IMG/VR virus record: IMGVR_UViG_3300048813_000087
Coordinates: 1 to 39,116 of that record
Direction: 5' to 3' (one strand)
Length of the DNA: 39,116 nucleotides
From: a virus
Each line of letters opens with the position of its first letter. The stretch's first letter is position 1. The notes below the pieces were generated by a model. That model was given only the letters and a program-made list of their open reading frames with translations, did not search any database and was not told where the DNA came from. Below are positions 2,868-27,326 of this stretch, piece after piece. The position numbers and the translations under genes were made by a program.

Positions 2868-4490
2868 TCATTCAAAAACTTTCTTTTTGATTTTAATGTG
2901 TTTACCTTCCATTGCAATAAATAAAGAGCTGGGCGTTTCAATTTCAGCCAGCATTAATTCTACTTTATTTCTATTATTTAAATGCATATACCATTTACTT
3001 GAATCTTTGCAATGTTTTCTAACAAATTGTCCATAGAATATATTTGTAGATTTATTGGATTGAGGTGAATAACTTTCATATACTTTTTTTTGTGAACCGT
3101 TTTTATCTATACAAGTATAAATACAGTTTAATCGAAAGCCTCTATTTGGCCCTGTAATATTATAATTTGCTCTTAAAACCTTGAGTTCAGTTTGTATTGA
3201 TTTTATTTTAAGCAGTGAAAGTTTCGCATTAGGATCGATAATTTCTTTTCCGCACGCATGACAATTCCTTGCTGCAATATCATTTTTTGCCTCACATTCT
3301 GTATTTAAACATTCTTTGAATTCAAAATAATAATCGCAGCGTGCTTCTTTAAATTGTCCTAAGCAACGTCTTGCGTGCTCTGTATTCATAGTGATACATT
3401 GAGGGCATTGAATAACCAGTGGTTTGTCTTTATCGATTGTTTGTTTTAGGGCGTTCATCAATATTGGATCGTCCCAATCACTATGACGCTCTATATTTCC
3501 TGCAAAATCTAAGACAAGTGCTTCTTTTTTTCCACTGGAAGGTGACAGGCGCAATACCCTCCCCATTGTTTGAACCATGAGAACCAAGCTTTCGGTTGGT
3601 CTAAGATAGGCAAGAGTATCGTAGGCTGGTATGTCAACCCCAACACTAATAATAGCAATATTAACCAAATACCGAATTTGACCTTTTCTTGCCTTATCCA
3701 ATGTTTTAGAGCGCTCATCTTGTGGCGTATTTCCTAATATTAAGGCCGTTTGGGAAACTGGCAAATAACCAACAATTTCTCTAGCATGCGCGGTTGTTGA
3801 AGCAAATATAAAGATTCCGAATCTATTTTGAGATTCCATAATATGAATTATTTGTTTGCAAATTAATTTTGTTAATCTGCAATTATTATTAATCACCTCT
3901 GTTAATTGTTGATGATCGAATAGTCCGTTATTTTTGACCTTAACTTTTGAAAAATCAATAATATAATTTTCATTAATGTTAAATGTTGGCTCTATCAAAT
4001 ACTTTTCTTGTATCAGTTGACTTGTAGTGATGTTTCCGACTCGTCGTCTGAATAAACATCCTTCTCCGACGATAGTGCATCCTCTAAATCTGAAATCTGT
4101 TCCAGTAGCACCGAGTAATCGCATTGAGGGGTATTGTTGTTTGTAATGCCTAAGTATCCGCATAAAGCAAGAACTGTCATTAGTGTAATTAATAGTATGG
4201 GCCTCATCAACAATGATGATATTAAACTTAATTTCTGCAATTTTTCCATTTTTATTAATTCCATTTAAAATTGATTGAGGGGTTCCAAATATTACTGATT
4301 CAGATATTTCTTTTTTGCCCAACGCGGCACTATAGATTGATGATTTTCCGCCTTGTTCATTAAATGTCTGACTATTATTTTCTACTAAATCAGCGCTATG
4401 AACAATGCATAATGCTGATTTTCCTGCTTTTTGTATTGTGAGCAATATATCGGACATCATGAGGCTCTTGCCACTTCCAACAGATGCCAT
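2868..4490 (-). CDS. SF2 DEAH-box helicase (ATG-started part)
   Basis: A superfamily 2 DNA/RNA helicase. Counting from the ATG at 4490, the Walker A GSGKS is at residues 6-10, the Walker B DEAH at 95-98, a GATGT motif III follows, and QTMGRVLR is motif VI. The C-terminal third carries zinc-binding cysteine clusters (CPQC, then C-x4-C and CHAC). The ATG lies inside the fold: the same frame stays open upstream to 4604 and encodes a Q-motif-like LRPYQQQAV before the P-loop. The true protein is therefore about 30-38 residues longer and must start at a non-ATG codon. It follows the endonuclease VII-like fragment and belongs to the replication/recombination module. Confidence 0.93.
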   Translation of the reverse strand: MASVGSGKSLMMSDILLTIQKAGKSALCIVHSADLVENNSQTFNEQGGKSSIYSAALGKKEISESVIFGTPQSILNGINKNGKIAEIKFNIIIVDEAHTINYTNDSSCFMRILRHYKQQYPSMRLLGATGTDFRFRGCTIVGEGCLFRRRVGNITTSQLIQEKYLIEPTFNINENYIIDFSKVKVKNNGLFDHQQLTEVINNNCRLTKLICKQIIHIMESQNRFGIFIFASTTAHAREIVGYLPVSQTALILGNTPQDERSKTLDKARKGQIRYLVNIAIISVGVDIPAYDTLAYLRPTESLVLMVQTMGRVLRLSPSSGKKEALVLDFAGNIERHSDWDDPILMNALKQTIDKDKPLVIQCPQCITMNTEHARRCLGQFKEARCDYYFEFKECLNTECEAKNDIAARNCHACGKEIIDPNAKLSLLKIKSIQTELKVLRANYNITGPNRGFRLNCIYTCIDKNGSQKKVYESYSPQSNKSTNIFYGQFVRKHCKDSSKWYMHLNNRNKVELMLAEIETPSSLFIAMEGKHIKIKKKVFE

Positions 4491-5750: not shown

Positions 5751-6028
5751 GATTCACTACTCTGTATTATGGCCTGCCTTTGTATTTCTGATAAAATTCC
5801 AGCAATAAAGAATTGTGGATTTTCCATGCCTTTACAAAAGGTTACTAGCGATTCTCTGCAAAACATGATAAACGCAGAAACAATAATATCTGTTTGTGCC
5901 CGTTCATCATATTCTCTGATTTTCATATATAATTCTTTGTTAAACATGGTATGTAAAAGGTCTGTGGTAACTTTTGCTTTTAACTTTTTCTGTTCTTCAT
6001 TTAAAAAATGACCTTTTTCAAACTTCAT
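5747..6028 (-). CDS. Small helical early protein
   Basis: I start this 93-residue protein at the ATG at 6028. It overlaps the stop of the Cas4-like gene as ATGA and is preceded by AGGAAGGAG at 8 nt; a GTG nine bases upstream would leave no spacing. It is mostly helical with a few cysteines. Unknown family. Tight coupling suggests it works with, or is dosed with, the nuclease-like protein. Confidence 0.75.
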   Translation of the reverse strand: MKFEKGHFLNEEQKKLKAKVTTDLLHTMFNKELYMKIREYDERAQTDIIVSAFIMFCRESLVTFCKGMENPQFFIAGILSEIQRQAIIQSSES

Positions 6029-6597
6029 CTGTGACACTCCTTCCTAAACTGGCATTTCTTACATTGAAACCACACTGGAGATTCATTAATTCGTTGAGGC
6101 GGTTCTTTCATCATCATGATTGCCTCTCCTTTGGCCTTAAGTAAATCATAATGCACAGCATCGAATTTGACGATTTCACCCCACAACTCGCCCGTATCCA
6201 TATTAAGCATAAAAATTGGAAGCTCTTTTAATTTCTTATCACCCATTAAATACTGAGATTGATCGAAATTTTTATAACTGTATGCTCGCATTCCATTTTT
6301 TTTGAATTTGTTAAACAATAAGTCTTTTTCTGCTAAACATGAACAAACAACTTTGTAAAAAGGTGAATGGGAAACAGCGTCATAAACTAATTTTTCAGCA
6401 TGATATTTAAATTCTTGTAAACGTGCTTGTTCTAGACTAAACGGTAATCCTTCATACTCATGGCTTGAATACCATATCTTTCTTGAGCAGTCATGACCAA
6501 TCATAGAAGGTGTAATATAATCTCTAGTTCTTGGCTTAAGTTCATTCCTGTATGTTTCTTGTAAGTTTTTCTCTATTTCTTTAAGTATTTTTTTCAT
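6025..6597 (-). CDS. Cas4/RecB-like Fe-S nuclease-family protein
   Basis: A 190-residue member of the PD-(D/E)XK Cas4/RecB-like group by its frame: SMIGHDCSRKIWY with C37 near the N-terminus and a C-terminal FQCKKCQFRKEC (C179, C182, C188), the four cysteines that hold a 4Fe-4S cluster in this group. The part FDQSQYLMG...DTGELWGE resembles the region after the catalytic core. The expected aspartate and E-x-K motif between are not evident, and the chain is shorter than typical relatives, so it may be catalytically dead or very divergent. In phages such proteins act as 5' exonucleases beside an annealase/ATPase and SSB, as here. Confidence 0.75.
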   Translation of the reverse strand: MKKILKEIEKNLQETYRNELKPRTRDYITPSMIGHDCSRKIWYSSHEYEGLPFSLEQARLQEFKYHAEKLVYDAVSHSPFYKVVCSCLAEKDLLFNKFKKNGMRAYSYKNFDQSQYLMGDKKLKELPIFMLNMDTGELWGEIVKFDAVHYDLLKAKGEAIMMMKEPPQRINESPVWFQCKKCQFRKECHR

Positions 6598-6864
6598 TTA
6601 ATGCGCCTCTTGTGCGATATCATGTAATAAAATATCTTGAGGACTTCCTCCTTGCTTAATCACTTCGTCAACCAAGCAAATAAAACAAAATATCTTTGCA
6701 TTTTTATTTTTGCGTAATTCTATCTTTTTCTCGCTAACCCAAATGAGGGTCTTGCATAACTGGCAACCTTCAATAATGCACGGGCTTTGATCTGTAGGTG
6801 CAGACGATAAATGCTCAACAGGAATGCACCCTATTATTAAATCTTTTTCAAAATCTATTTTCAT
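6598..6864 (-). CDS. Small zinc-binding early protein
   Basis: An 88-residue protein with CQLC near residue 34 and CFIC near residue 60, the two knuckles of a zinc ribbon. AAGGATGTT precedes the ATG. It is the first gene after the structured RNA at 6881-7127 on the same strand and abuts the Cas4-like gene. Function unknown. Confidence 0.75.
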   Translation of the reverse strand: MKIDFEKDLIIGCIPVEHLSSAPTDQSPCIIEGCQLCKTLIWVSEKKIELRKNKNAKIFCFICLVDEVIKQGGSPQDILLHDIAQEAH

Positions 6865-6880
6865 AACATCCTTAAAAAAG

Positions 6881-7127
6881 TGACATGCTCCACGAATTGC
6901 ACGTGGTATGAGTCAACTTGACTTGTAGGCGTTGCTTGGACGCCTCGTTATCTAGTTTTATTCGTCGGGCTATCCGAACTCTATAAATTTCTAAAATAAA
7001 AACCAAGCTAGTTTTTATTAATTAAATTCAGAGCACGTAACGCAACACTAGCCATTAGACCCTTTCGCAGCTAACGGACTCAATCTCTGCTGTCGACTGC
7101 GCTTCACTGTCAGCGCCGAGCATGTCA
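6881..7127 (-). ncRNA. Structured RNA candidate (HEARO-like?)
   Basis: A gene-free stretch, visibly richer in G+C than its flanks, is closed by a perfect 10-bp inverted repeat (6881-6890 with 7118-7127). Nested inside are hairpins at 6927-6945 (6 bp), 6995-7019 (9 bp) and 7099-7116 (GCGCU/AGCGC), a UCGG/CCGA hairpin near 6965-6976, a CACG/CGTG hairpin at 6891-6905, and a long-range 6-bp pairing of about 7079-7084 with 6909-6914. Read on the minus strand, ATGA stands at the 5' border and an AGGCGUCC-containing hairpin near the 3' end; both recall HEARO/omega RNAs of HNH transposon systems. That family call is tentative. Strand is chosen from operon direction and these features. Confidence 0.6.
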
Positions 7128-7136
7128 TAAATTGTT

Positions 7137-7155
7137 TAATGGCTTACGGCCATTA
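7137..7155 (-). other. Hairpin after the SSB gene
   Basis: A 7-bp perfect stem (TAATGGC/GCCATTA) with a 5-nt loop lies just past the stop of the DUF669 gene and just before the structured RNA. No T tract follows on either strand, so it is more likely an RNA-stability or processing element than a terminator. Confidence 0.5.
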
Positions 7156-7170
7156 CTCGCACATATTGTA

Positions 7171-7725
7171 TTAAAACGGAACATCATCCACCAGACTCTC
7201 ATCTACAGGCGCAGGATTCCTTGTAAATGCGCTGTCTGTACTCTTTCTCTCATGAGTTACGGTAATTTTAACGCCAGTCTCAGACTTGAACCCTTGTGAT
7301 GTATGAACCTCCGACACCCAATTGTATTGTTTACCTTCATCATTCGGCTCTGTTTCACGGATAACAATACCCGCAATCTTTCCTTTAAATACAATCAAAT
7401 CTTGGTCTGTAGGCATGTTGCTATGTTTTGGCTTGATGTTAAACATATCAAATATAAGTTTCAACATGTTTAATGCACGATGTCTTTTTTTTGCATCTTC
7501 ATCGTGAACTCTTATTTTTTGACTTACTTTTTGATCTTTAAAATCCCCATCAATCAACATCCAGTCAATGTTTATATAATTCATTCCGTTATACAAAACG
7601 CTCATAAATGATTCTATTCTTGCGATGGCTTTGGTATTATCGGGTATCTGCTTAAATGTTTTCGCAAATGCGTCTTCCATGGTTCCCGTTACCTCTCCGA
7701 TTTCGCTTGTCCAGAAATTAGACAT
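7171..7725 (-). CDS. DUF669-type single-strand DNA-binding protein
   Basis: This 184-residue protein begins with a short acidic/polar segment, follows with a beta-rich core (NYINIDWMLIDGDFKDQKVSQ...) and ends with an acidic tail DESLVDDVPF, the hallmark of phage and bacterial SSBs whose C-terminal D-D-(V/I)-P-F peptide recruits partners. The layout fits the DUF669 family, commonly found next to Sak4-type ATPases and RecB-like exonucleases. Its job would be to coat ssDNA in phage recombination and replication. An HNH gene separates it from the ATPase. Confidence 0.85.
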   Translation of the reverse strand: MSNFWTSEIGEVTGTMEDAFAKTFKQIPDNTKAIARIESFMSVLYNGMNYINIDWMLIDGDFKDQKVSQKIRVHDEDAKKRHRALNMLKLIFDMFNIKPKHSNMPTDQDLIVFKGKIAGIVIRETEPNDEGKQYNWVSEVHTSQGFKSETGVKITVTHERKSTDSAFTRNPAPVDESLVDDVPF

Positions 7726-7743: not shown

Positions 7744-8427
7744 TTAAACATGTTTCCATGTTTTGTTATATTTTATGCTCTCTACAAAATGTACAGGAAG
7801 ATTTAAACTTCTTGCAATTAATGTAGGGCTGCTAATATTTTTAAGTAGTTTTTTTACTAATATGACAACTTCTTCTTTAACTTTAGTTCTAAAATGATCC
7901 TCTCCCTTTGGCAAGTTATCCCGTCCTTTTTTTATTTTATCTAAATTATTATCTAGTGCAGTTCCTAAAAACAAATGATCTACATTTACACATTTTGGAT
8001 TATCACAATGATGACAAATCAACATGCCTTTAGGTATTTTTCCATTTTTTAATTCATAAGCATAACGGTGCGCCTTTACTTGTATTGATTTTTTCAAGCT
8101 AAACATTCCATAACCCCATACGCATAACTTATCAGTCCATTCATGACATCCATTTTGGATATTTATTTTTATTTTTGAATTAAATCTATCAATTTCAGAC
8201 ATATCTCTAATTGTTTTTTTGGGATAACCATATCTTTTAAGATGACGATAATGTTTATCGCAGTATCCTTTTGATACATGATCTCTATTGCATCCTTCAA
8301 AAGTACATAAATCTGGATATATTTTTTTCAAAATTATATTTTCTGATATCATTTTGTTATAATGGGATATACAGAATCCTTGCGCCCTATGCTTGTTAAT
8401 GCATCCTTGCATAGAACAAAAGTTCAT
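7744..8427 (-). CDS. HNH homing endonuclease with N-terminal zinc fingers
   Basis: A 227-residue protein. Two N-terminal repeats of a C-x4-C-x(n)-G-(F/Y)-C-x2-H-Y finger cover residues 4-60, with the HNH core at about 118-155 (AHR at 119-121, CHHC 138-141, C-x-N-x-D-H ending at H151, then LFLGT). A C-terminal helix-turn-helix-like tail ends in TWKHV. The same WKH ending is seen in the HNH protein at 1780-2478. It sits between the ATPase and SSB genes and overlaps the former as ATGA, the usual placement of a free-standing homing endonuclease in an essential module. Confidence 0.9.
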   Translation of the reverse strand: MNFCSMQGCINKHRAQGFCISHYNKMISENIILKKIYPDLCTFEGCNRDHVSKGYCDKHYRHLKRYGYPKKTIRDMSEIDRFNSKIKINIQNGCHEWTDKLCVWGYGMFSLKKSIQVKAHRYAYELKNGKIPKGMLICHHCDNPKCVNVDHLFLGTALDNNLDKIKKGRDNLPKGEDHFRTKVKEEVVILVKKLLKNISSPTLIARSLNLPVHFVESIKYNKTWKHV

Positions 8428-10322: not shown

Positions 10323-11135
10323 ATGTCTCAACATCATTTCAATATTAAAATTGCTCAATTGTATAGTGTTGAAGAAGCAATATTTTTAAATAACCTTGAA
10401 TTTTGGACAAGACACAATCAAGCAAACCACACGAATTTTCATAAAGGCCGCTATTGGACTTACAATTCTCGCGAAGCTTACACAAAATTGTTCCCTTATT
10501 GGTCTGCTGATCAAATCAAAAGAATCATTCAAAAATGTATATCAAATAAACTTATAGAAAAAGATTGTTTCAACAAAAACCCATACGATCGAACGAGTTG
10601 GTACTCACTTACAAATGAGGCAATTTTGTTGCTTGGAATGGAGTCAAATACCTTTCAATCCCTTGTAGAATCGACTGGGCGAAATCGCCCAATCGACTGG
10701 GCGACCCAATCCGCCTCATTGGGCGAAATCGCCCAACCTATACCATATATAAAACCAGATGAAAAACCAATTATTAATACTACCCCCCTACCCCCCAAGC
10801 CCGAAGATCCTAAAAAAGTCGAGGCGGTAAAAAAAGTAACCTCTCTTTCTCTTGAAGATCTAAAAGCCTCCAACCCTCATGACATCCCAGATGAGCATCT
10901 TTTAGATTGGCTCAGTTATCGAAAAAAGCCTATAACCCTATTATTTTGGGAGGAAATGAATAAAACGTTATCAACGTTAGCTTCTAAAGGAATATATCCA
11001 GAGGAAGCTTTTACGGCAATGCTGAAAAACAGATGGGGCGGAATTGAAGAGCGATATTTTGAGAAAGATATCGAATATAAAAACAAAAAACGTTCTGCGT
11101 ATAAAAACACAGTTGAATCAGTAATGAGGGCGTAA
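10323..11135 (+). CDS. Lambda O-like replication initiator
   Basis: A 270-residue protein. I start at the ATG at 10323, behind AGGA, rather than an upstream TTG. Residues 1-105 look like a winged-helix DNA-binding domain (AQLYSVEEAIFLNNLEFW; YWTYNSREAYTKLFPYWS, then a helix and a hairpin). A proline-rich flexible linker (about 120-170) and a C-terminal helical domain (LEDLKASNPHDIPDEHL) follow. The linker-coding DNA carries the iteron/palindrome cluster at 10669-10736, as the lambda origin lies within O. The protein would bind its own gene, melt the origin and pass it to the helicase loader encoded next. Confidence 0.85.
   Translation: MSQHHFNIKIAQLYSVEEAIFLNNLEFWTRHNQANHTNFHKGRYWTYNSREAYTKLFPYWSADQIKRIIQKCISNKLIEKDCFNKNPYDRTSWYSLTNEAILLLGMESNTFQSLVESTGRNRPIDWATQSASLGEIAQPIPYIKPDEKPIINTTPLPPKPEDPKKVEAVKKVTSLSLEDLKASNPHDIPDEHLLDWLSYRKKPITLLFWEEMNKTLSTLASKGIYPEEAFTAMLKNRWGGIEERYFEKDIEYKNKKRSAYKNTVESVMRA
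10669..10736. other. Predicted replication origin (iterons)
   Basis: Two direct repeats AATCGACTGGGCGA (10669-10682, 10691-10704) are 22 bp apart, about two helical turns. Two palindromes TGGGCGA-AA-TCGCCCA (10676-10691, 10720-10735) overlap or follow them. An AT-rich tract (10737-10785) comes next as a possible unwinding element. Its position inside the initiator gene matches lambdoid origins. Confidence 0.7.
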
Positions 11136-25700: not shown

Positions 25701-26552
25701 ATGCAACAAATTCAAAATGAAACTATCTATTCGTTACCGAGATTATATACCCAAGGATTACAACTATCAGCTGCATCTACCACAGTTATGGCCGTTTCTC
25801 CGGGAGCTGCGCGTGATTCCACAAACAGCATTGACATGGTTGTTGGGCTGCAAAACTATTTTGGGATTGATAATCCCGCAGTGCAATTTCAAAATTATCA
25901 ACCCGGATTGTTGATTAACTCTACGGTAAATGGAGTTAATGGACTTGATACAGGAACAATTGCAGCTAGTACACAATATGCCGTGTATTTAATTGGTGAT
26001 TCAAGAAATTATCTTAACACCGCTGCTGTTTTAAGCCTTACAAGTAATACAGCGCCTACGTTGCCTTCAGGCTATGACTCTTATCGCTTGATTGGGTTTT
26101 GGGAAACTGATGGTTCAAGTCATTGGGTATATGCGACACATAAACCACAAAATATCGCAGGATTGTTGACATATTTTAATGTACCTGCAATTTCTGTTTT
26201 ATCGGGTGGAAATGCAACTACTTTCACAGCAATCGACTTGACTACCAATAGTGCAATTCCTACAACTACATTACCAAATGTAATTGTTACTCTATTGGTT
26301 ACTTTTACGCCTGCTGCGGTTGGCGATATTGTGCAGTTTAGACCAACCGGATCTGCCGCCACTGGAAATCTTCCTACGATTACAGGCGTTTCTGCGGGTA
26401 TTGCTCAGAGTCAATATATCCAAGTTATTGCGGGTGTGGGTTCTTCTAAACCTGAAATTGATTATCTGGTTTCATCAACCTCTGATGCCGTCAGTGTATT
26501 AGTTATTGAATGGTCTGGAGTATCTAATAGCGCTTATCCTGCGCTAGTCTAA
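25701..26552 (+). CDS. Putative structural protein after coat
   Basis: A 283-residue beta-rich protein with a small N-terminal segment, a middle block YAVYLIGDSRNYLN, then LPSGYDSYRLIGFWETDGSSHW, and a T/V/S-rich C-terminus. The central block resembles virion proteins found in several phages. Possible head decoration, minor head or fibre-base protein. AAGGACAATAC upstream. Confidence 0.8.
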   Translation: MQQIQNETIYSLPRLYTQGLQLSAASTTVMAVSPGAARDSTNSIDMVVGLQNYFGIDNPAVQFQNYQPGLLINSTVNGVNGLDTGTIAASTQYAVYLIGDSRNYLNTAAVLSLTSNTAPTLPSGYDSYRLIGFWETDGSSHWVYATHKPQNIAGLLTYFNVPAISVLSGGNATTFTAIDLTTNSAIPTTTLPNVIVTLLVTFTPAAVGDIVQFRPTGSAATGNLPTITGVSAGIAQSQYIQVIAGVGSSKPEIDYLVSSTSDAVSVLVIEWSGVSNSAYPALV

Positions 26553-26570
26553 TGATAAGGAGCGTGTATC

Positions 26571-27326
26571 ATGGCTTATACAGCACAGGACTTGATCACG
26601 CGCTCCTTATACCTCTCTGGTATTCTTGCGCGTAATTTACAAACACCTACATTCGATCAAATCAATAATGGGCTTCAAATGCTCAATTCTATGCTTGATT
26701 TCAAGCAAATTGAATTGGATTTGATTCCCTATTACACATACATTGAAATGCCGCTTATAGCAGGACAAGAAAATTATTTCTTACCCTTTGTAGGGCTTGT
26801 TGAGTCCGCAACCTTTAATATAAATGTTGTTCGCTATCCCATGGATTCGGTATCACGCAGGAATTATTATGGCTCTGCTCGCGTGGATAACATTTCTTCT
26901 CTTCCTTTCAGCTGGAATTACAACAGAGCTTTAGGAGGAGGCTATTTTGCAACATATTTTCTACCTGAATCAAACTATCCGCTTAAGATGATGGTTAAAA
27001 TATTTTTAGTCGATGTTGCCCTTAATACAGATTTAACCAATATCTCTGTTACAGGATTGCCTTATACATTTATCAATTCAGCCAATCAAGGACTTGATAC
27101 CAGCTATATTGAATACTTGCGCTATGAACTGGCGGCTTATTTTTGCAGTGAGTATGGAATTCAATTCAATCCAGATTCAATGAATATATTAAAATCCTAC
27201 AAACGTAAATTAATGTACATAGAACCACCCGATTTATCGATGAAAAAAGTTTCAATATTAGCAGGAGATGGACAGCAGGGGTATAATTACGGTGACGTTA
27301 ATATCGGTAAAGGGTGGCGCCCCTGA
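26571..27326 (+). CDS. P22 gp4-like tail accessory (connector) protein
   Basis: A 251-residue protein with the family start TAQDLITRSLYLSGILA, INNGLQMLNSMLDF, a P22_Tail-4 pattern, and a C-terminal extended segment (KVSILAGDGQQGYNYGDVN) that would reach into the portal. In P22, gp4 binds the portal after packaging and carries the tail machine. Longer than P22 gp4 (166) because of a middle insertion. Followed by a 98-nt AT-rich gap with no visible gene. Confidence 0.88.
   Translation: MAYTAQDLITRSLYLSGILARNLQTPTFDQINNGLQMLNSMLDFKQIELDLIPYYTYIEMPLIAGQENYFLPFVGLVESATFNINVVRYPMDSVSRRNYYGSARVDNISSLPFSWNYNRALGGGYFATYFLPESNYPLKMMVKIFLVDVALNTDLTNISVTGLPYTFINSANQGLDTSYIEYLRYELAAYFCSEYGIQFNPDSMNILKSYKRKLMYIEPPDLSMKKVSILAGDGQQGYNYGDVNIGKGWRP

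What the first reader, a model, noticed from the sequence alone, without database searches (positions are those of the whole stretch)
6881..7127. Structured non-coding RNA candidate inside the recombination operon
About 250 nt lack any ORF, are clearly richer in G+C than both flanks, and are closed by a perfect 10-bp helix (6881-6890/7118-7127). At least five nested hairpins and a long-range 6-bp pairing fill it. Seen on the minus strand, ATGA at the 5' border and a hairpin with GGCGUCC near the 3' border recall HEARO/omega RNAs, which accompany HNH/IscB-type transposon proteins. Here no such ORF is adjacent; the nearest HNH genes are homing enzymes. It could be a stand-alone element, a regulatory RNA of the SSB/nuclease genes, or a new phage RNA class.
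Basis: partly seen in the sequence, partly recalled or inferred. Interest (0 to 1): 0.78.

Follow-up and report, generated by a model that had tools for sequence, protein, structure and literature searches.

The report
New tRNA-mimicking phage RNA family
The stretch encodes one member of a previously uncatalogued family of virus-encoded RNAs that copy the ends of a transfer RNA but carry a different, exchangeable folded module in the middle; they are common in uncultured bacterial viruses and may help them deceive their hosts.

Summary
It lies on the minus strand (7127→6881). It is not HEARO/omega RNA: Rfam HEARO gives no match, and no Rfam family matches it. Fold energy and the 10-bp helix alone are weak evidence (z about -2.4; 3% of local shuffles contain such a helix).

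Homologues settle it. A relative phage with the same gene order (SSB, gap, CxxC protein, Cas4) has the same RNA with compensatory changes. Patterns from its constant loops recovered 87 distinct members. They share a 7-bp acceptor-like stem (99.7% paired, 32 extra pair types), a 2-nt linker, a D-arm-like hairpin (loop GACAGUGA) and a T-arm abutting the acceptor stem (loop mostly UGCAAUU, in one distinct member canonical UUCGACU). This is tRNA connectivity with the anticodon region replaced by a variable payload of about 30-250 nt. A covariance model trained without the window finds it at E=2.9e-11.

Some members sit in tRNA arrays; none has a fixed protein partner; BLAST finds none in 50,697 deposited phage records. 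A Legionellaceae prophage related to this phage has one.

Most likely: a tRNA-mimic frame presenting exchangeable payloads. tRNA-type maturation is plausible; a decoy or adaptor role is inferred and untested.

The parts
6881..7127 (-). Whole tRNA-mimic RNA
   Evidence: Covariance model trained without the window or its nearest homologue: 46.6 bits, E=2.9e-11, full-length
7119..7127 (-). P1 5' strand (UGACAUGCU), acceptor-like stem; the inner 7 pairs are the conserved core
   Evidence: inner 7 pairs 99.7% paired in 82 distinct end pairs, 32 extra pair types
7117..7118 (-). 2-nt linker CG
   Evidence: C 82/82, G 80/82
7099..7116 (-). D-arm-like hairpin GCGCU-GACAGUGA-AGCGC
   Evidence: loop conserved in the independently found homologue L096, stem covaries
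6907..7098 (-). Variable payload (192 nt), replacing the anticodon and variable arms
   Evidence: no conserved sequence across members
7068..7092 (-). Tentative pseudoknot, 5' part: S1 CAGC 7092-7089 / GCUG 7071-7068, S2 5' strand UGAGUC 7082-7077
   Evidence: sequence; group-level support in other members only, window's own not significant
6909..6914 (-).
   Evidence: sequence; matches the position of S2' and the A/UA/AUA tail in many other members
6981..7033 (-). AU-rich long hairpin inside the payload
6890..6906 (-). T-arm CCACG-UGCAAUU-CGUGG
   Evidence: 99% paired, 15 extra pair types; 74 of 87 members have loop UGCAAUU
6881..6889 (-). P1 3' strand (AGCAUGUCA); then C and U6
7138..7154 (-). 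Small hairpin AATGGC-CGTAA-GCCATT between SSB and the RNA, shared with kin phage L098, where a T-run follows it
7171..7725 (-). Upstream gene: SSB-like protein
   Evidence: phrog_9002 E=8e-20
6598..6864 (-). Downstream gene: 88-aa CxxC protein, homologue after the RNA in L096
   Evidence: 41% identity over 75 aa

Best explanation
It is a stand-alone phage RNA with a tRNA-like frame: acceptor-like stem, 2-nt linker, D-arm-like hairpin and T-arm, connected as in tRNA, in which the anticodon and variable arms are replaced by a variable folded payload. It is probably transcribed with the phage operon and cut out and protected like a phage tRNA, because an acceptor stem stacked on a T-arm is the shape that RNase P and other tRNA enzymes recognise. 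The frame would stabilise the payload and bring it to tRNA-binding partners (tRNA enzymes, the ribosome, or tRNA-attacking defence nucleases), with the payload deciding the effect: a decoy or inhibitor. SHOWN: the frame, the family, the exchangeable payload, the association with tRNA arrays. INFERRED: maturation as a tRNA (about 0.6) and decoy/inhibitor action (about 0.3). That the window holds a real RNA of this family: about 0.98. The confidence given is for a tRNA-mimic frame whose payload acts in trans.
For: Compensatory changes in three helices in the independently found homologue L096; 87 distinct members; P1 core 99.7% paired against 54.7% in column shuffles, T-arm 99% against 77%, slid pairings far lower; window found at E=2.9e-11 by a model that excluded it. 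tRNA-like: 7-bp core directly abutting a 5-bp/7-nt T-arm, 2-nt linker before the D-type arm; canonical T-loops UUCGACU and UUCAAUU in some members; a D-type loop with GG in L250; 11 of 87 members within 300 nt of a tRNA, five of them 2-8 nt away; a real tRNA at the same SSB-downstream site in L108; CCA directly after P1 in 8 of 82 against about 1.3 expected. Modular: related payloads on different acceptor stems. In trans: neighbours diverse; kin phages carry it at other genome positions; flanking ORFs mostly on the same strand.
Against: No expression data. Most members, the window included, encode no CCA. The Rfam tRNA model does not match even the shortest member, position 55 of the T-loop is usually G, and P1 is often 8-9 bp, so tRNA enzymes may not accept it. 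Most members are not beside tRNAs. The payload pseudoknot is not significant in the window itself. No direct evidence bears on decoy action.
Confidence: 0.55

Rival explanations
1. Cis-acting element: the fold controls expression or processing of the mRNA of the downstream CxxC/Cas4 genes or of SSB.
For: It lies within an operon, 17 nt before the next start codon; three phages have it right after SSB (window, L096, and L153).
Against: Across members the neighbouring genes are diverse; kin phages have the RNA elsewhere and SSB-Cas4 without it; payload varies while the ends stay constant.
Confidence: 0.15
2. Mobile DNA element (MITE-like) whose P1 strands are terminal inverted repeats; the RNA fold is incidental.
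For: Terminal inverted repeats; scattered genome positions; tandem copies in L127, L137 and L208.
Against: P1 sequence differs widely while pairing is kept, and G-U pairs occur; unpaired loops are the most conserved part; T-loop variants follow the tRNA rule; flanking ORFs are mostly co-directional. No target-site duplication was seen in the window by eye (not tested systematically).
Confidence: 0.06
3. An aberrant tRNA or tmRNA: a tRNA gene with an insertion or intron, or a divergent tmRNA, still acting in translation.
For: tRNA connectivity, tRNA-array location, some CCA ends; kin locus L108 holds a tRNA with a long insertion; a tRNA match overlaps member L141.
Against: No Rfam tRNA or tmRNA match to the window or L192, no ARAGORN hit in the window; no constant anticodon arm was seen in the short members printed; no common sequence in payloads. 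tmRNA has no D stem and charges alanine through G3-U70, which was not seen in the members inspected (established knowledge plus sequence).
Confidence: 0.15
4. HEARO / IscB-type omega RNA, stand-alone copy.
For: ATGA at the 5' border; HNH genes nearby.
Against: Rfam HEARO gives no match at E<=10. The nearby HNH proteins are of the HNH_3 homing type. No nuclease partner is common among the neighbours of members.
Confidence: 0.01
5. Chance structure in a non-coding gap.
For: Fold z only about -2.4, helix common in shuffles.
Against: Family-level covariation and a model hit at E=2.9e-11.
Confidence: 0.005

Closest known systems
tRNA (Rfam RF00005)
   Same: acceptor-type 7-bp core abutting a 5-bp/7-nt T-arm; 2-nt linker; D-type arm; occurs in tRNA arrays; sometimes CCA
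   Different: no anticodon arm; large variable payload; usual T-loop UGCAAUU and constant D-type loop GACAGUGA; no Rfam tRNA match to the shortest member
tmRNA (RF00023 and relatives)
   Same: tRNA-like ends carrying a non-tRNA module, probably with pseudoknot
   Different: no Rfam match; here a stable D-type stem; no constant tag frame; no G3-U70 in the members inspected
GOLLD and ROOL phage RNAs
   Same: structured phage RNAs of unknown function near tRNA islands; GOLLD also has a constant and a less conserved part (PMC12286853)
   Different: no Rfam match; much smaller (84-309 nt here, many GOLLD over 800 nt); tRNA-like ends
Bacterial Y RNA (YrlA)
   Same: a small RNA said to carry a tRNA-like module (from general knowledge)
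   Different: no Rfam match; no Rsr/Ro60 partner was seen; constant loops differ
HEARO / IscB omega RNA (RF02033)
   Same: similar length; ATGA at the border
   Different: no covariance-model match; no nuclease partner

Membership tests
The new phage tRNA-mimic RNA family (this report) | P1 + linker + D-type hairpin + payload + T-arm, by covariance model | tested here: met
   46.6 bits, E=2.9e-11, model trained without the window
HEARO RNA | match to the Rfam HEARO model | tested here: not met
   no match at E<=10
HEARO RNA | adjacent IscB/HNH transposon-type ORF | tested here: not met
   adjacent genes are SSB-like and an 88-aa CxxC protein; nearest HNH protein is of the HNH_3 homing type
tRNA | match to the tRNA covariance model or ARAGORN | tested here: not met
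   none in the window nor in the shortest member L192
tRNA | 7-bp acceptor stem directly stacked on a 5-bp/7-nt T-arm | tested here: met
   the window has 9 pairs, inner 7 constant across the family
tRNA | anticodon arm | tested here: inconclusive
   no constant arm seen by eye and no common payload sequence
tRNA | 3' CCA end, CCA addition, aminoacylation | tested here: inconclusive
   CCA encoded directly after P1 in 8 of 82, absent in the window; enzymatic steps not testable
tmRNA | match to Rfam tmRNA models or ARAGORN | tested here: not met
tmRNA | G3-U70 and tag reading frame | not tested
   G3-U70 not seen in the members inspected by eye; tag frames not searched for
GOLLD / ROOL | match to Rfam models | tested here: not met
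   full Rfam scans of window and members
Group I intron | match to Rfam Intron_gpI | tested here: not met
   no match at E<=10
Bacterial Y RNA | match to Rfam models | tested here: not met
Bacterial Y RNA | Rsr/Ro60 binding | not testable with these tools
   needs biochemistry

The most novel reading that the evidence does not exclude
A modular anti-host RNA device: a tRNA-mimicking chassis, matured by the host's own tRNA machinery, onto which phages of uncultured bacteria swap different folded payloads, each acting on a different tRNA-dependent host or defence factor.
Probability: 0.3. Interest if true: 0.95.

Novelty: categorically new. Interest (0 to 1): 0.86.

Why it matters
It is an abundant structured RNA family (113 contig stretches from one strict pattern) that is missing from Rfam and, by BLAST, from deposited phage genomes, with an architecture that I found nowhere described: tRNA ends plus an exchangeable module. 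Phage tRNAs are now reported to evade tRNA-targeting defences (PMC10264068, PMC11555353; [quoted passage not shown] A natural RNA that presents that shape with a separate payload makes the decoy idea directly testable. The frame could also serve as a natural scaffold for displaying RNA modules.

Tried and rejected
BLAST of the element against phages and plasmids: nothing real. Paralogues inside the window suggested by similar repeat spacing: no similarity. Pattern on the exact P1 arms: one chance coding hit (L092), because P1 is not conserved in sequence. Protein-coding or decayed gene: no support. Payload as antisense guide to DNA of its own locus: longest matches equal shuffles (9.4 against 9.5 nt). 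Fixed partner gene: none. In some searches eleven hits are one unrelated conserved phage sequence, and L133/L135 and L144 lack the stems, L146, L148 and L149 are chance. Alignments A4-A7 are not the basis of the model (A7 had a wrong first row). Payload pseudoknot: significant as a group (z about 6), but the mirrored control is also raised (z about 3.6) and the window's own is not significant, so it stays tentative. SSB-profile scan of bacterial genomes: no confirmed relative.

Full report
WHAT WAS CHECKED. The stretch 6865-7170 between an SSB-like gene (7171-7725, phrog_9002) and an 88-aa CxxC protein gene (6598-6864) has no sizeable ORF and no frame with phage-like codon usage. The 10-bp inverted repeat is real. 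Judged on this one sequence the case is weak: fold-energy z is about -2.4 on both strands, and perfect 10-bp repeats are common (28 in the window against 19.5 in shuffles; 3.3% of local shuffles). G+C is 0.441 against 0.352 and 0.375 in the neighbouring genes, but the near end of SSB is 0.413.

KNOWN FAMILIES. Rfam 15 has no match in the window at gathering thresholds and only noise in a permissive scan. HEARO and group I intron models give nothing at E<=10. ARAGORN finds no tRNA or tmRNA in the window.

FIRST HOMOLOGUE. Relatives of the SSB gene were collected. In most of them SSB is followed closely by a Cas4-like gene. One, L096, has the window's order: SSB, 232-nt gap, a homologue of the 88-aa protein (41% identity), Cas4. 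Its gap folds the same way with different stems and the same loops: P1 UGGCAAUC/GAUUGCCA against UGACAUGC/GCAUGUCA; GUGUG-GACAGUGA-CACAC against GCGCU-GACAGUGA-AGCGC; GCCGG-UGCAAUU-CCGGC against CCACG-UGCAAUU-CGUGG. These are compensatory changes in three helices, found through the neighbouring gene and not through any RNA pattern.

THE FAMILY. The two loops gave a pattern that returned 31 viral stretches, about half of them true members. A second pattern on the first hairpin alone returned 113 stretches. Of 100 matches examined, 88 have at least 7 of 9 P1 pairs plus at least 4 of 5 T-arm pairs downstream; the position was chosen as the best of many offsets, so the weaker ones are less sure, but 33 have a perfect 9 + 5 pairs with the exact loop UGCAAUU, which chance cannot give. 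P1, the T-arm and its loop were not in that pattern and are independent evidence. After requiring at least 6 inner P1 pairs, 4 T-arm pairs and a T-type loop, 87 distinct members remain, 84-309 nt long. In 82 distinct end pairs the inner seven P1 pairs are 99.7% paired against 54.7% (maximum 58.5%) after column shuffling, with 32 pair types beyond the first; slid pairings fall to 24-42%. The T-arm is 99% paired against 77%, with 15 extra types. Pairing percentages are raised by the inclusion rule; the number of pair types is not. The D-type stem is 100% paired but was partly constrained by the pattern. A covariance model built from 33 members without the window or L096 finds the window at 6881-7127 minus, 46.6 bits, E=2.9e-11, and L096 at E=1.3e-17.

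ANATOMY. The inner seven P1 pairs are followed by 2 nt (CG), a 5-bp hairpin with loop GACAGUGA, a variable region, and a 5-bp/7-nt T-arm directly abutting P1. This is tRNA connectivity with the anticodon and variable arms replaced. The usual T-loop is UGCAAUU; variants include UUCGACU (L181 and its near-copy L193), the canonical tRNA form, and UUCAAUU (L249). A Legionellaceae prophage member has a D-type loop GUUUAGGGA with GG. CCA follows the 9-bp P1 directly in 8 of 82, against about 1.3 expected; most members have none. In the window one C and U6 follow the stem.

PAYLOAD. Most payloads share no sequence. A few classes exist, and in one (L173, L184, L207, L208) related payloads sit on different acceptor stems. 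Within classes some payload helices show compensatory changes (L157/L216, L119/L147, read by eye). As a group, payloads are enriched for a pseudoknot ending next to the T-arm (mean score 26.6 against 21.2, sd 0.85), but the mirrored control is also raised (25.0 against 21.7) and the window's own pseudoknot is not significant. Payloads show no unusual antisense match to the DNA of their own loci.

CONTEXT. Eleven of 87 members lie within 300 nt of a tRNA, five of them 2-8 nt away, although only 18 have any tRNA in the DNA held. A tRNA match overlaps member L141. The SSB-downstream site is itself a tRNA site in kin phages: L108 has a tRNA there (31.6 bits), and L098 has T-arm-like pieces plus a hairpin shared with window 7138-7154. 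Members occur in tandem in L127, L137 and L208. Neighbouring genes are diverse and mostly co-directional, on crude ORF calls, and kin phages carry the RNA at other genome positions. The consensus ends have only weak partial BLAST matches (E 0.4 and above) in deposited phages, and none in plasmids or E. coli. In bacterial genomes the RNA is rare: 2 of 143 genomes in the family of a Legionella MAG, 2 of 369 in a class sample, 1 of 398 in a phylum sample (strict filters). One of them (G159, a 3.3-Mb contig) has it in a prophage whose terminase is 73% identical to the window's. The host of the window phage is therefore probably in or near the Legionellaceae; this is an inference.

MECHANISM. Shown: a conserved tRNA-like frame, exchangeable payloads, association with tRNA arrays, no fixed protein partner. 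From established knowledge of tRNA maturation: an acceptor stem stacked on a T-arm is what RNase P recognises, so tRNA-type maturation is plausible (about 0.6). Inferred: the frame takes the payload to tRNA-binding host or defence factors as decoy or inhibitor (about 0.3). The published setting is that phage tRNAs evade tRNA-targeting defences (PMC10264068, PMC11555353; [quoted passage not shown] The closest analogues in habit, GOLLD and ROOL, also lie near phage tRNA islands and have unknown function (PMC12286853), but no Rfam model of either matches.

NOVELTY. No Rfam family matches, and seven literature searches found no description (preprints and most subscription journals are not held). 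I rate it categorically new, with the caveats that a description outside the held library cannot be excluded and that tRNA-like RNAs as such are known.

Noticed in passing
window 6025-6597 (-): The Cas4-family protein (190 aa) lacks the stretch that in kin phages holds GH(V/I)DA and E(I/V)K(T/S), the likely catalytic motifs; it may be an inactive nuclease.
   Followed up: partly
window 7744-8427 (-): An HNH_3 endonuclease gene sits between Sak4 and SSB, which are directly adjacent in kin phages such as L003: a likely homing insertion.
   Followed up: no
L253 (G159 C1:1726000-1745900): Prophage in a Legionellaceae genome with a terminase 73% identical to the window's, a Ku-like protein, and a member of the RNA family beside the small terminase gene.
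   Followed up: partly
L098 4560-4730: The SSB-Cas4 gap holds two tRNA T-arm-like pieces and a hairpin with T-run that shares 22 nt with window 7138-7154 surroundings.
   Followed up: partly
L108 3035-3148: tRNA with a long insertion in the D-arm region, missed by ARAGORN, at the site where the window has the tRNA-mimic RNA.
   Followed up: partly
L141 3055-3250: A tRNA match (36 bits, 3104-3222) lies inside a member of the family, within a tRNA array.
   Followed up: partly
L256 about 960-1130: A member whose D-type loop has an inserted small hairpin.
   Followed up: no
window 10501-10930 and 26521-26830: Minus-strand folds stand out from the window's GC trend inside the O-like gene (possible origin region) and at the start of the 26571 gene.
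   Followed up: no
L118, L120, L122, L124, L126, L128, L129, L132, L138, L142, L145: One unrelated sequence conserved across these contigs happens to match the first RNA pattern; not examined.
   Followed up: no
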